Below are positions 43,270 through 48,944 of a stretch of DNA of 64,000 bases, piece by piece. A program made the translations under genes and the position numbers. The notes below the pieces were generated by a model that did not search any database, had not been told where the DNA came from, and saw only the letters and a list, made by a program, of their open reading frames with translations. How positions within the stretch are numbered: the stretch's first letter is position 1; the number at the start of each line of letters is the position of its first letter. This stretch comes from Flagellimonas oceani (GTDB lineage Bacteria > Bacteroidota > Bacteroidia > Flavobacteriales > Flavobacteriaceae): positions 3,492,001-3,556,000 of the forward strand of contig NZ_CP049616.1 in NCBI RefSeq assembly GCF_011068285.1, read 5' to 3'.

Positions 43270-43833
43270 ATGTTGAAACATGAACTAAGAAAAAAATACA
43301 AAAATCTGAGAGCGGGAATTTCTCCAACAAAAGCTTCGGATTTAAGTTTGGCCTTGGCCAACAGTTCACTTCAAATCCCTATCTGGGATTTTTTTTATTA
43401 CCATATCTTTTTAAGCATCGAGGACAAAAACGAAGTGGATACCCTACCCTTGATCACCTTGTTACAGGGCAAGGATAAAAATATAGTCATTCCCAAAGTC
43501 GTTGGTTCCAATAGCTTGGAAAATTATTTGCTTACGGATACCACTGCCTTTAAAAAAAGTGCCTGGGGAGTGCCAGAGCCGGTTGAAGGCATAGAGGTCC
43601 CCGAAAACAAAATCGATGTGGTTTTTGTTCCCTTGTTGGCTTTTGATGAAGCAGGAAACCGCGTAGGTTATGGCAAAGGATTTTATGATGGCTTTTTGGG
43701 CAAATGCCCCAAGGAAACACGTAAGATAGGATTATCGTTCTTCGCTGCCGAACCAGAACCTATAACCGATGTTCATGCAAACGACGTGAAACTGGACTAC
43801 TGCATCACCCCGGAAAAGGTTTATGCGTTCTGA
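43270..43833 (+). CDS. 5-formyltetrahydrofolate cyclo-ligase
   Basis: ATP-dependent enzyme (MTHFS/YgfA) that returns 5-formyl-THF to 5,10-methenyl-THF in one-carbon metabolism. The 187-aa protein shows the family's N-terminal KHELRKKYKNLR (substrate/ATP lysine and arginine), KDKNIVIPKV, and the C-terminal signature VPLLAFDEAGNRVGYGKGFYDGFL, followed by VKLDYCITP. It is cytoplasmic. Its last 13 bp overlap the 3' end of the convergent lspA gene. In some bacteria this gene lies beside 6S RNA, but I see no clear 6S-like structure here. Confidence 0.93.
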   Translation: MLKHELRKKYKNLRAGISPTKASDLSLALANSSLQIPIWDFFYYHIFLSIEDKNEVDTLPLITLLQGKDKNIVIPKVVGSNSLENYLLTDTTAFKKSAWGVPEPVEGIEVPENKIDVVFVPLLAFDEAGNRVGYGKGFYDGFLGKCPKETRKIGLSFFAAEPEPITDVHANDVKLDYCITPEKVYAF

Positions 43834-44471
43834 TCAGCGTCGACTTCGTTTTTCTCATCCTGCTTAGGGAATGCCTTTTTATTGAATACGATCAAAATAC
43901 CAACGCCGGTACTGATCGCCGTATCCGCAATATTAAAAACAGGCTCAAAAAATCGGAAGCGTCTTCCTCCCACCGATGGAACCCAATCGGGCCAAGTAGT
44001 ATCCACCAAAGGAAAGTACAGCATATCCACCACCTTGCCATGGAAAAGACTTCCGTAGGGCTCATCGGCAAAAAGGGTGGCCACCTGCCCATTGCTATGG
44101 TCAAATATAATTCCGTAGAAAACCGAATCAATAATGTTTCCAACAGCACCTGCAAAAATCAGGGAGACCGCCAAAATCAAGGTTCGCGGCGACTGTTTTT
44201 TAATGATGTCCCACAGCCAGTAGCCTATCCCAAAAACGGCAAAAATCCTGAAAATGGTCAATATCAGTTTTCCGACCGGTTCGGATATTGGCAACAAGTC
44301 GCTCAACTTGGTCCCCCAAGCAGCCCCCTCGTTCTCTATAAAAAGAATTTTGAACCAACTGAACACTTCGTGGGCCTCTCCCAATATAAAACTGGTCTTT
44401 ATATAGACTTTGCTGATCTGGTCCACAACCAAAATCAGTACTATGATAATAAGGGACTTCTTTAAACTCAT
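43821..44471 (-). CDS. lspA: Lipoprotein signal peptidase
   Basis: Inner-membrane aspartyl protease that removes the signal peptide of prolipoproteins after diacylglyceryl transfer. The 216-aa protein has four membrane helices and the catalytic Asp pair Asp115 (GAVGNIIDS) and Asp183 (FNIADTAIS). The early VVDQISKVYI and NEGAAWG (about 47-53) are family motifs. It is somewhat longer than the E. coli enzyme through a periplasmic loop (about 120-165), as in other Bacteroidota. Many of the window's proteins are its likely substrates. It is the last gene of the ileS-dksA-DUF4097-lspA set and overlaps the cyclo-ligase gene by 13 bp. Confidence 0.95.
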   Translation of the reverse strand: MSLKKSLIIIVLILVVDQISKVYIKTSFILGEAHEVFSWFKILFIENEGAAWGTKLSDLLPISEPVGKLILTIFRIFAVFGIGYWLWDIIKKQSPRTLILAVSLIFAGAVGNIIDSVFYGIIFDHSNGQVATLFADEPYGSLFHGKVVDMLYFPLVDTTWPDWVPSVGGRRFRFFEPVFNIADTAISTGVGILIVFNKKAFPKQDEKNEVDADQNA

Positions 44472-44504: not shown

Positions 44505-45125
44505 TTATTTTGTTTTCATCAGTAAGATATCACCTTCCACCGACTTTAGAACAAATTGGTCATTACCAAAAGGGATATGCTCTCTTCTCACGGTACCATA
44601 TACACTTTCTGCAGATACCTCTCCGCGTGGGACCGAAAGGACAATATCCCCGGTCTGGGTGGTCACTTTTACCGACTGGGAAATATTTTGCAGGGAGCAG
44701 CGACCATTGGACAAGGCAACGGTCAAATGCTCATACGTTCCCGTGGCAAATACATTGGTCCCGGTTCCGAATACTTCAACGTTCTTGTACTCGGGCACAC
44801 GTATTTCCAAAGCTATGGAGACAACTTTGTGAGCGCTGAGCTTATCGTTTGGGTTTATAAAGTTGGGGTGAAATTCCGAGCTGATCATGGCAGTGGCCCC
44901 ACTCTCGGTGATGGAAACCAAAAGGTCTTTGGCGTACTCTCCTTCCATGGTTGCCGAAACATGGATCTCATTGATCGGCTCCGTCTTTAAATCGATGCGA
45001 TAACAATATTGGGCATCAATTTGTATGGTTTCGGTACGAGGATCAACAAAGGCCTTCCTCACCAATTTTTGCCCTTGGACATTGACCAGTGTAAAAACAA
45101 ACAACAAGAACACCAATGCCCTCAT
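44505..45125 (-). CDS. DUF4097-like beta-repeat exported protein
   Basis: The 206-aa protein begins with a signal peptide (ending NVQGQ) and continues as short beta-strand repeats of the DUF4097/head-GIN type (VEVFGTGTNVFATGTYEHLTVALSNGRCSLQNISQSVKVTTQTGDIVLSVPRGEVSAESVYG). This predicts a right-handed beta-helix-like solenoid in the periplasm or on the surface. The function is unknown. It sits between the dksA-like gene and lspA on the same strand. An intrinsic terminator lies immediately before its start codon, so its expression is probably lower than, or separate from, ileS-dksA. The gap to lspA is 33 bp. Confidence 0.72.
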   Translation of the reverse strand: MRALVFLLFVFTLVNVQGQKLVRKAFVDPRTETIQIDAQYCYRIDLKTEPINEIHVSATMEGEYAKDLLVSITESGATAMISSEFHPNFINPNDKLSAHKVVSIALEIRVPEYKNVEVFGTGTNVFATGTYEHLTVALSNGRCSLQNISQSVKVTTQTGDIVLSVPRGEVSAESVYGTVRREHIPFGNDQFVLKSVEGDILLMKTK

Positions 45126-45154: not shown

Positions 45155-45538
45155 TTATTTTTGCATATTCTTAGCCTCAATGCTCAACGTAGCATGGGGC
45201 ACAAGCTTTAAACGCTCTTTATTGATGAGCTTTCCTGTTACCCTGCAAATGCCATAGGTCTTGTTCTCGATTCGCAACAAAGCGTTTTTAAGGTCACGGA
45301 TAAATTTTTCCTGGCGGATGGCCAACTGTGTGTTCGCCTCTTTGCTCATGGTCTCGGAACCTTCCTCGAACGCCTTGAACGTTGGCGAGGTATCATCGGT
45401 TCCATTGTTGCCATCGTTCATGTAAGAGCTCTTTAAAAGCTCCAAATGATTTTTGGCCTTTTCCATTTTCTCCTCGATCAATGTTCTGAATTCCGCAAGG
45501 TCCTTGTCGGAGTATCTTACTTTTGAATCTTCTGCCAT
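45155..45538 (-). CDS. DksA/TraR-family RNA-polymerase regulator with degenerate zinc finger
   Basis: The 127-aa protein has the coiled-coil stem of DksA-like secondary-channel factors (about 12-95) and the C-terminal globular part YGICRVTGKLINKERLKLVPHATLSIEAK. Of the usual four zinc cysteines only Cys98 is left. Thr101 stands at the second place, and no Cys is found at the other two. Similar single-Cys forms appear in other Bacteroidota, so this is a lineage feature rather than decay. It may modulate transcription at rRNA or stress promoters, with or without ppGpp. The gene is 4 bp downstream of ileS and ends at a terminator. The acidic tip residues cannot be mapped with confidence. Confidence 0.88.
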   Translation of the reverse strand: MAEDSKVRYSDKDLAEFRTLIEEKMEKAKNHLELLKSSYMNDGNNGTDDTSPTFKAFEEGSETMSKEANTQLAIRQEKFIRDLKNALLRIENKTYGICRVTGKLINKERLKLVPHATLSIEAKNMQK

Positions 45539-45542
45539 TTTC

Positions 45543-48500
45543 TTAATGTTTTTGAATAAACAATTTTGTGTTCACCTCATCAAAGGCTATTGCAACACCA
45601 TCTTCAAGTTTCTCTTCAAAGTTGAGCTCGGCGGTCAACGTTTCCGTTTTGATATAATCCTCATTACTGGAAACCGCATTTTCCACTAGGCCGTCCTTCA
45701 ATATTTTAATGTCGATTTTATCGGTTACCTCAAATCCGGATTCTTTTCTCAGGTTCTGGATTCGGTTCACCAATTCCCGGGCAATTCCCTCCTTTTTCAA
45801 GTTTTCGTCTATGGTAACATCCAGTGCCACAGTCAACGGACCGGAACTGGCTACCAACCAACCCTCTATATCTTGGGAACTTATTTCTACATCGGTTAAC
45901 TGTAAATTAACGGTTTTATTTTCCAACTGTAGCAATAATTCTCCTTCATGTTCCATTTTTTGGATATCCTCTTGACCCAAGTTTGATACTTTGCCGGCAA
46001 TTGCCTTCATATCCTTACCAAATTTCGGGCCCAACACCTTAAAATTGGGTTTAATTTGCTTTACAAGTACGCCCGAAGCATCGTCCAACATTTCAATCTC
46101 CTTCACATTGACCTCGGATTTCACCAAATTGGATACAGATTCAATGTCCTTTCTTTGCTCATCGTCCAATACGGGAATCATGATTTTTTGAAGCGGTTGG
46201 CGCACCTTTATTTTTTCCTTCTGACGGATGGAAAGCACCAAAGAGGAAATCTTTTGGGCCAATTGCATCTTACGTTCCAAGTCCTTGTTCACCATACTGG
46301 AATCATAAACTGGGAACTCTGCCAAGTGTACGCTTTCAAAACCTTCTTTTTGTGAAGTAGCATCTAAATCCCTGTACAATTGTTCCATAAAGAACGGTGC
46401 AATCGGGGCGGATAATTTGGCCACTGTTGACAGACAGGTATAAAGGGTTTGGTATGCGGAAATCTTATCCGTTCCGTAATCCCCTTTCCAGAAACGTCTC
46501 CTACACAAACGCACGTACCAGTTGCTCAAATTTTCTTGAACGTAGTCAGAAATCATTCGAGCGGCACGGGTAGCCTCGTAATCATTGTAGGCTTCATCCA
46601 CATTTTTGATCAAGGTGTGCAACTCGGACAAAATCCATTGATCGATCTCTGGTCTTTCATCCAAAGGAATATCGGCCTCGGAATAATCAAACGCATCAAT
46701 ATTGGCATAAAGCGCCATAAAGGAATAGGTGTTGTAAAGTGTTCCGAAGAACTTTCGCTTTACCTCCACAACGCCTTCTATATCAAATTTAAGGTTGTCC
46801 CAAGGATTGGCATTGGAAATCATATACCAACGCGTGGCATCGGGTCCATGCTCTGGCAACACCTCGAAGGGGTCTACCGCATTGCCCAATCGTTTGGACA
46901 TTTTTTTGCCTTCCTTGTCCAAAACAAGTCCGTTGGAAACCACATTTTTATAGGCAATGCTATCAAAAACCATGGTTCCAATAGCGTGCAGGGTATAGAA
47001 CCAACCACGGGTCTGATCTACACCTTCGGCGATAAAGTTGGCTGGGAACGCAATGCCGTCATCAATCAGTTCCTTGTTCTCAAAAGGGTAGTGCCATTGC
47101 GCGTAGGGCATGGAACCACTATCGAACCAAACATCGATAAGGTCTGCTTCACGCTTCATCGGCTGCCCTGATGGCGAAACCAAGGTGATGCCATCCACAA
47201 TATTTTTGTGCAAATCGATTTTATCGTAGTTCTCCTCGCTCATATCGCCCACTACAAAATCTTCGAAAACGTCTTTGTCCAAAACTCCAGCCTCAACTGC
47301 CTTTGCCATTTCAGATTTCAATTCCTCCACGGAGCCGATGATCAATTCTTCCTTCCCATCATCGGTTCGCCAGATAGGCAACGGAATACCCCAATATCTT
47401 GATCTAGAAAGGTTCCAATCGTTCGCATTGGCCAACCAGTTGCCAAATCGGCCCTCTCCAGTGGATTTTGGTTTCCAGTTAATGGTCTGGTTCAACTCAA
47501 ACATACGATCCTTGACATCGGTCACCTTAATGAACCAAGAGTTCAACGGATAGTAGAGGATGGGTTTGTCCGTACGCCAGCAATTTGGGTAGCTGTGCAC
47601 GTATTTTTCGACCTTAAAGGCCTTGTTCTCTATTTTTAGTTTGATGGCAATCTCTACATCGACGGACTTTTCAGGTGCTTCGCCCTCATCGTAGTATTCG
47701 TTCTTCACATATTTGCCACCAAACTCTTTCAGTTCAGGTCTAAATTTACCTTGAAGGTCCACCAACGGGACCGGGTTGTCATTTTCATCCAAAACCAGCA
47801 TCGGCGGTATCTCCGGCGTTGCCTGTTTTGCCACCAAGGCATCGTCCGCACCAAAGGTGGGTGCCGTATGCACGATTCCCGTACCGTCCTCGGTGGTTAC
47901 AAAATCACCTGAAATTATTCTGAAGGCATTCTCAGGATTTTGGTAGGGCTGCACGTAATCGATCAGCTGCTCGTACTGAATGCCGACCAAATCCTTGCCC
48001 ACAAAAGATTCTCCTACCAAATACGGAATCTTTTTGTCACCTTCCTTAAATGCTTTCAACTCTTCCTCGGTTTCAACCTGTTTGAACTTCCCAGAAAAAT
48101 TGTAGTTGACCAAGTTTTTGGCCAGCACTACATTTATGGGCTCGAACGTGTATTGGTTGTACGATTTTACCAGTACATATTCAATCTTCGGCCCAACGGT
48201 CAATGCCGTGTTGGATGGAAGTGTCCAAGGCGTGGTCGTCCAAGCCAAAAAGTGAATGTCTCCCTCTATTTTCTTCAAAAATGCTGGAAGTGAATCGGTT
48301 TTGGCCTTGAACTGTGCGGTAACCGTGGTATCCGTCACATCTTGATAGGTACCAGGTTGATTCAACTCGTGGGAACTTAATCCCGTACCCGCCTTTGGCG
48401 AATAGGGCTGAATGGTGTATCCCTTATAAATAAGTCCTTTGTCATAAATCTGTTTCAGCAGCCACCAAACGGATTCCATATACTTGGACTTGTAGGTGAT

Positions 48501-48944
48501 GTAGGGGTCTTCCATATCCACCCAATAGCCGACTTTCTCGGTCATCTCGTTCCACACGTCCGTGTAGCGCATTACCGCTTTTTTACAGGCCGCATTGTAA
48601 TCCTCTACCGATATTTTTTTGCCGATATCCTCTTTGGTGATGCCGAGCTCTTTTTCCACACCGATTTCCACAGGAAGGCCATGGGTGTCCCATCCGGCTT
48701 TTCTTTTTACCTGAAAACCCTTCATGGTTTTGTACCGTGGAAAGATATCCTTGATGGTACGCGCCATTACGTGGTGAATCCCGGGCATTCCGTTTGCAGA
48801 TGGAGGGCCTTCAAAAAACACATAGCTCTCTTTGCCTTCCCTAGTGGAAACGCTTTTTTCAAAAATCTTTTTATCCTTCCAAAAGTCAAGAACATCCTCC
48901 GATACCTTTGGCAAATCCAATCCCTTATATTCCGCAAACTTCAT
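45543..48944 (-). CDS. ileS: Isoleucyl-tRNA synthetase, type 2, with GIHH signature
   Basis: The 1133-aa IleRS is long and eukaryote-like (type 2), with the CP1 editing domain (TTPWTLPSNTAL, TWDTHGLPVE), the KMSKR loop (GKKMSKRLGNAVDPF) and a long C-terminal part. The HIGH signature normally reads H-x-G-H. Here it is Gly55-Ile56-His57-His58 (codons 48771-48782), that is, the first and third residues are exchanged. I recall published work that links this GXHH form to very high mupirocin resistance in some IleRS2 enzymes. The dksA-like gene follows after 4 bp. The leader has a TAATTTTG -7 box and a perfect palindrome CTTGAATTCAAG (48960-48971). Confidence 0.97.
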   Translation of the reverse strand: MKFAEYKGLDLPKVSEDVLDFWKDKKIFEKSVSTREGKESYVFFEGPPSANGMPGIHHVMARTIKDIFPRYKTMKGFQVKRKAGWDTHGLPVEIGVEKELGITKEDIGKKISVEDYNAACKKAVMRYTDVWNEMTEKVGYWVDMEDPYITYKSKYMESVWWLLKQIYDKGLIYKGYTIQPYSPKAGTGLSSHELNQPGTYQDVTDTTVTAQFKAKTDSLPAFLKKIEGDIHFLAWTTTPWTLPSNTALTVGPKIEYVLVKSYNQYTFEPINVVLAKNLVNYNFSGKFKQVETEEELKAFKEGDKKIPYLVGESFVGKDLVGIQYEQLIDYVQPYQNPENAFRIISGDFVTTEDGTGIVHTAPTFGADDALVAKQATPEIPPMLVLDENDNPVPLVDLQGKFRPELKEFGGKYVKNEYYDEGEAPEKSVDVEIAIKLKIENKAFKVEKYVHSYPNCWRTDKPILYYPLNSWFIKVTDVKDRMFELNQTINWKPKSTGEGRFGNWLANANDWNLSRSRYWGIPLPIWRTDDGKEELIIGSVEELKSEMAKAVEAGVLDKDVFEDFVVGDMSEENYDKIDLHKNIVDGITLVSPSGQPMKREADLIDVWFDSGSMPYAQWHYPFENKELIDDGIAFPANFIAEGVDQTRGWFYTLHAIGTMVFDSIAYKNVVSNGLVLDKEGKKMSKRLGNAVDPFEVLPEHGPDATRWYMISNANPWDNLKFDIEGVVEVKRKFFGTLYNTYSFMALYANIDAFDYSEADIPLDERPEIDQWILSELHTLIKNVDEAYNDYEATRAARMISDYVQENLSNWYVRLCRRRFWKGDYGTDKISAYQTLYTCLSTVAKLSAPIAPFFMEQLYRDLDATSQKEGFESVHLAEFPVYDSSMVNKDLERKMQLAQKISSLVLSIRQKEKIKVRQPLQKIMIPVLDDEQRKDIESVSNLVKSEVNVKEIEMLDDASGVLVKQIKPNFKVLGPKFGKDMKAIAGKVSNLGQEDIQKMEHEGELLLQLENKTVNLQLTDVEISSQDIEGWLVASSGPLTVALDVTIDENLKKEGIARELVNRIQNLRKESGFEVTDKIDIKILKDGLVENAVSSNEDYIKTETLTAELNFEEKLEDGVAIAFDEVNTKLFIQKH

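What the first reader, a model, noticed from the sequence alone, without database searches (positions are those of the whole stretch)
48771..48782. IleRS carries the swapped GXHH form of the HIGH signature
Residues 55-58 of the type 2 isoleucyl-tRNA synthetase are Gly-Ile-His-His where nearly all class I synthetases have His-x-Gly-His. The KMSKR loop and the rest of the enzyme look intact, so this is a working enzyme with an altered signature. From memory, this exchange of the first and third signature residues has been described in a group of IleRS2 enzymes with extreme resistance to mupirocin. If so, this marine organism is naturally insensitive, and the enzyme is this genome's main or only IleRS.
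Basis: partly seen in the sequence, partly recalled or inferred. Interest (0 to 1): 0.75.

Follow-up and report, generated by a model that had tools for sequence, protein, structure and literature searches.

The report
Isoleucyl-tRNA synthetase with swapped signature motif
This bacterium's only isoleucine-loading enzyme carries a known swapped active-site motif tied to very strong mupirocin resistance, but every relative read across its phylum has the same swap, so it looks like an ordinary inherited trait.

Summary
Window 48771-48782 (minus strand) encodes Gly-Ile-His-His, residues 55-58 of a 1133-aa type 2 IleRS (45543-48944). It is the only IleRS found in a one-contig 4.61-Mb genome. ValRS, LeuRS and MetRS of that genome have HMGH, HVGH and HIGH.

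Insensitivity of this strain is likely but inferred.

What I add: the swap does not single out this organism. It is in 223 of 223 genomes of the phylum whose motif could be read (118 in a phylum draw, window included, plus 105 more in a class draw) and in 80 of 80 named genome records. One carrier is a single 489,825-base contig. The residue matching E. coli Tyr59, needed there for pre-transfer editing, is Ser in 134 of 134 class genomes and Thr in 89 of 89 others. This predicts phylum-wide intrinsic resistance, old and fixed rather than locally selected. Known kind; low interest.

The parts
45543..48944 (-). ileS, type 2 isoleucyl-tRNA synthetase, 1133 aa
   Evidence: TIGR00392 989.6 bits, cut-off 621.4; Pfam tRNA-synt_1, Anticodon_1, DUF5915; only IleRS found in the genome
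48771..48782 (-). G-I-H-H, residues 55-58, swapped form of the HXGH signature
48798..48800 (-). Ser49, position matching E. coli Tyr59
   Evidence: Ser in 29 of 118 phylum-draw genomes (the 29 of the class), Thr in the other 89; Ser in 105 of 105 further class genomes
46890..46904 (-). KMSKR, residues 681-685, second class I signature
47079..47093 (-). HYPFE, residues 618-622, type 2 IleRS mark
   Evidence: translation, alignment; mark named in PMC4861432
48222..48239 (-). TTTPWT, residues 236-241, conserved stretch of the CP1 editing domain
   Evidence: invariant in 117 of 117 readable phylum-draw rows; placing it in CP1 is recalled
47841..47885 (-). GTGIVHTAPTFGADD, residues 354-368, CP1 editing-site stretch
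   Evidence: Asp368 in 117 of 117 readable rows, facing Asp in E. coli; placing it in CP1 is recalled
45155..45538 (-). DksA/TraR-type zinc-finger protein, 127 aa, 4 bases downstream of ileS
   Evidence: PF01258; match in 79 of 80 relatives' loci
43821..44471 (-). lspA, lipoprotein signal peptidase, 216 aa
   Evidence: PF01252; match after the zinc-finger gene in 68 of 80 relatives' loci, some of which are cut short by contig ends

Best explanation
This is the housekeeping type 2 IleRS of a bacterium close to Flagellimonas/Allomuricauda (Muricauda), carrying the already described G/AXHH form of the class I signature. [quoted passage not shown] Shown here: the motif, the single gene, its conservation and its purifying selection. 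Inferred: catalysis through His57 and hyper-resistance of this enzyme and strain. The motif is a fixed trait across the phylum in my samples, not a feature of this lineage. Ser49 in place of E. coli Tyr59 suggests, weakly, that proofreading rests on the intact CP1 editing domain.
For: Motif and frame. Type 2 marks: HYPFE present, no Tyr59, no NKIL, no cysteine after residue 940. Only IleRS found in the genome. Best PDB match by sequence is 8c8w, which shows GVHH at this place. Published kinetics: natural ALHH enzyme Ki 6.6 mM, dropping 823-fold when made canonical; GVHH raises Ki in two canonical IleRS2; S. griseus IleRS Ki 10 mM. G-x-H-H in 223 of 223 readable phylum genomes. dN/dS 0.025, 0.032, 0.035.
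Against: No Ki, MIC or activity datum for this enzyme or its genus was found in the searches (capped listings). The motif alone does not fix the size of resistance: Ki 35 uM in GVHH Thermus IleRS2. In other class I synthetases loss of the first His costs about 1000-fold in rate, so activity through His57 is by analogy.
Confidence: 0.88

Rival explanations
1. The enzyme is a normal IleRS2 with the swapped motif, but its resistance is only moderate (micromolar Ki), because the motif's effect depends on the rest of the active site.
For: GVHH put into Thermus IleRS2 gives only 35 uM and into Priestia IleRS2 460 uM.
Against: Both natural G/AXHH enzymes with a reported Ki that I saw are millimolar: Deinococcus 6.6 mM, S. 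griseus 10 mM.
Confidence: 0.2
2. The swap is kept in this lineage by exposure to mupirocin-like antibiotics; in the sea, thiomarinols of Pseudoalteromonas would be the selecting agent.
For: Thiomarinols are made by marine Pseudoalteromonas and act on IleRS; MupA and MupM protect only partly and TmlM nearly fully (PMC3069032, passages). PMC10485003 proposes antibiotic selection for the motif.
Against: The motif does not vary in 223 of 223 phylum genomes and is kept in a genome of one 489,825-base contig, where exposure seems unlikely (inference). The motif of TmlM could not be read.
Confidence: 0.2
3. The gene is a defective or neofunctionalised paralogue and a conventional ileS elsewhere does the work.
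For: The first His of the signature is normally essential.
Against: The only other hit in the genome is valS. Signature and editing stretches are intact, selection is strong, and natural G/AXHH enzymes are active.
Confidence: 0.02

Closest known systems
G/AXHH type 2 IleRS (Deinococcus radiodurans, Streptomyces griseus), PMC10485003 and PMC4861432
   Same: Type 2 IleRS; first and third signature residues swapped; single housekeeping gene as in most IleRS2 bacteria described there.
   Different: Ki and activity not measured here; Ser rather than the Phe or Thr named in PMC4861432 at the Tyr59 position.
Priestia megaterium IleRS2 and its GVHH mutant (PDB 8c8u, 8c8v, 8c8w)
   Same: Best sequence matches among solved structures; 8c8w shows GVHH at the motif.
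   Different: The wild type is canonical HVGH; the mutant was made in the laboratory.
MupA/MupB acquired IleRS (NCBIfam NF000257, NF000258)
   Same: Related type 2 IleRS; 734 bits to each model.
   Different: Far below the 1900-bit cut-offs; here the gene lies in the main contig and is the only ileS.
Type 1 IleRS (E. coli)
   Same: Same reaction and overall class I architecture.
   Different: E. coli has HIGH, Tyr59 and NKIL; the paper found no IleRS1 with the swapped motif.

Membership tests
G/AXHH IleRS2 | Gly or Ala first and His third in the class I signature | tested here: met
   GIHH, residues 55-58
G/AXHH IleRS2 | Type 2 IleRS: HYPFE present; no Tyr59, no NKIL; no C-terminal Cys cluster | tested here: met
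   marks from PMC4861432 (passages)
G/AXHH IleRS2 | Intact KMSKS-type loop | tested here: met
   KMSKR, residues 681-685
G/AXHH IleRS2 | Serves as the housekeeping IleRS | tested here: met
   only IleRS found in the genome
G/AXHH IleRS2 | Mupirocin Ki in the high micromolar to millimolar range, dependent on the motif | not testable with these tools
   needs purified enzyme
G/AXHH IleRS2 | Same clade as the published G/AXHH enzymes | not tested
   no tree with non-Bacteroidota IleRS2 was built; source data of PMC10485003 not seen
MupA/MupB | Score over the NCBIfam exception cut-off (1900 bits) | tested here: not met
   734.4 and 734 bits

The most novel reading that the evidence does not exclude
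The whole phylum has been locked since its ancestor into the swapped-signature IleRS, without reversal even in a very small genome. Phylum-wide mupirocin hyper-resistance would then be a by-product of an ancient alternative active site, not an adaptation to the antibiotic; [quoted passage not shown] griseus IleRS does.
Probability: 0.3. Interest if true: 0.45.

Novelty: new member of a known kind. Interest (0 to 1): 0.2.

Why it matters
It recovers a published resistance mechanism from raw sequence and shows that, in the samples read here, it is the rule in a major bacterial phylum. Mupirocin should then spare that phylum at the level of the target. The Ser/Thr split beside the motif gives a clean comparison for asking how the signature and proofreading changed together.

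Tried and rejected
Considered and rejected: chance or sequencing error (motif invariant in the relatives read); pseudogene or paralogue (single gene); a general quirk of this genome's class I synthetases (ValRS, LeuRS and MetRS canonical; the other class I synthetases were not checked); MupA/MupB membership; a trait of this lineage or of marine life (phylum-wide).

Led nowhere: plasmid searches did not show TmlM of the thiomarinol producer among the rows listed (30 of 177 and 45 of 217 records), and the accession given in PMC3069032 is not held. The paper searches (full listing for 14, 42, 43; 20 of 31 and 20 of 198 listed for 18 and 34) showed no title or abstract start that reports mupirocin Ki or IleRS2 typing in this phylum; I did not open most of these papers. 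PMC13085705 (passages) has only a model prediction, from two infants, that mupirocin in plates raises Bacteroidaceae diversity. No structure was predicted and no family tree was built.

Rows dropped: dN/dS was tried on 7 relatives; L003, L004 and L005 are usable, L006 was saturated, L012 was out of register and L007 and L008 differed in length. In the class draw of 129 genomes, 5 had no IleRS2 match and 3 (G137, G201, G204) lack the N-terminus, leaving 121. None of the 5 has an IleRS over the TIGR00392 cut-off, so they look like missing genes, not canonical replacements; G156, scored 99% complete, stays unexplained. In the phylum draw, L177 (an in-frame stop) counts for the motif but not for the KMSKR and editing-site columns. 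The 240 proteins were chosen by similarity and are weak evidence for fixation. The lists rank matches; one search was cut, with unlisted rows below about 250 bits.

Full report
Observation. The minus strand at 48771-48782 encodes Gly-Ile-His-His, residues 55-58 of a 1133-aa ORF at 45543-48944. The protein matches TIGR00392 (ileS) with 989.6 bits, cut-off 621.4, and has Pfam tRNA-synt_1, Anticodon_1 and DUF5915. Aligned with E. coli IleRS, the four residues face His-Ile-Gly-His. The second signature is KMSKR (681-685), and the stretches TTTPWT (236-241) and GTGIVHTAPTFGADD (354-368) are present.

Only IleRS. In the one-contig genome of 4,610,330 bases the protein finds itself and one 21% match, which lies inside valS. 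The ileS profile finds one gene over its cut-off here and, among the rows listed, one in each of the 118 phylum genomes; in two of them the gene is listed as two pieces of one frame. In this genome ValRS has HMGH, LeuRS HVGH and MetRS HIGH, each with KMSKS, so the swap is not shared by these three relatives.

Organism. The nearest named proteins and loci belong to Flagellimonas, Allomuricauda and Muricauda; the nearest listed proteins are 95-97% identical. The window's genome itself is unnamed. That these genera are mostly marine, and that their phylum is Bacteroidota, is recalled.

Type and mechanism. The enzyme meets the type 2 marks of PMC4861432 (passages and section 24 seen): HYPFE present, no Tyr59, no NKIL, and no cysteine after residue 940 in the translation. 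The best sequence match among solved structures is 8c8w, which shows GVHH at this place; the related entries 8c8u and 8c8v are Priestia megaterium IleRS2 (PMC12945691, passages). PMC10485003 (abstract, introduction, results, discussion and one methods section seen, figures not) gives 77 HXGH and 86 G/AXHH IleRS2 in its tree. Its Table 1 gives Ki 6600 uM for ALHH Deinococcus IleRS2, falling to 8.1 uM when made canonical, and rises from 0.20 to 35 uM and from 1.08 to 460 uM when GVHH is put into Thermus and Priestia IleRS2. GXHH mutants of two IleRS1 made no product. In the Priestia mutant the third His stands where the first His acts, and by modelling it clashes with mupirocin. S. griseus IleRS has Ki 10 mM. 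All of this is carried over to the present enzyme by inference.

How widespread. G-x-H-H is in 80 of 80 loci of named genome records, by their titles mostly flavobacteria. It is in 118 of 118 genomes of a draw from the phylum, the window's included (67 genera). In a draw of 129 genomes of the class, 124 had a match, 121 a readable motif, and all 121 are G-x-H-H; 16 are in both draws, so the union is 223 of 223. No canonical or intermediate motif was seen. One carrier, G139, is a single contig of 489,825 bases, scored 93% complete. The main text of PMC10485003 does not hold the words Bacteroidota, Bacteroidetes or Flavobacter, but its tree figure and source data were not seen and may already show this distribution.

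Neighbouring residue. Position 49 matches E. coli Tyr59. It is Ser in the 29 class genomes of the phylum draw and in 105 of 105 further class genomes, and Thr in the 89 genomes of other classes. [quoted passage not shown] coli, while S. griseus IleRS lacks that activity and yeast IleRS keeps it (passages). The yeast case shows that loss of Tyr59 alone does not settle the matter, so my inference that the class relies on CP1 editing is weak. Asp368 is kept in 117 of 117 readable rows.

Selection and neighbours. dN/dS against three close relatives is 0.025, 0.032 and 0.035. A DksA/TraR zinc-finger gene follows ileS after 4 bases and lspA lies further downstream. The first is matched in 79 of 80 relatives' loci and lspA after it in 68 of 80; some loci end too early to show it.

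Against the local reading. Thiomarinols of marine Pseudoalteromonas act on IleRS (PMC3069032, passages), so a marine selecting agent exists. But the same motif throughout the phylum, and in a very small genome, argues that it is old and fixed. I built no tree, so 'ancestral' is inferred from uniformity alone.

Verdict. What stays open is why no reversion was seen in this phylum, although PMC10485003 reports one in the Deinococcus-Thermus clade.

Noticed in passing
44505-45125: A 206-aa ORF on the minus strand between the zinc-finger gene and lspA has no Pfam match.
   Followed up: no
45546-45608, 47259-47279, 47664-47699, 47763-47801, 48030-48044, 48087-48104, 48135-48149: Short stretches of the IleRS (among them residues 382-394 and 416-427) are present in most class genomes and absent from most others of the phylum draw.
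   Followed up: partly
P0198: A metagenomic 1340-aa protein joins an IleRS to a C-terminal lipoprotein signal peptidase domain (PF01252), as if ileS and lspA had fused.
   Followed up: no
H1-H4: Four records of 102-105 kb labelled as Riemerella anatipestifer plasmids carry an ileS 66.8% identical to this one; not checked whether they are true plasmids.
   Followed up: no
G156: A class genome scored 99% complete in 30 contigs shows no IleRS over the profile cut-off, only a ValRS-sized frame.
   Followed up: partly
   Followed up: no
1-64000: No tRNA or tmRNA gene was found in the 64-kb window.
   Followed up: no
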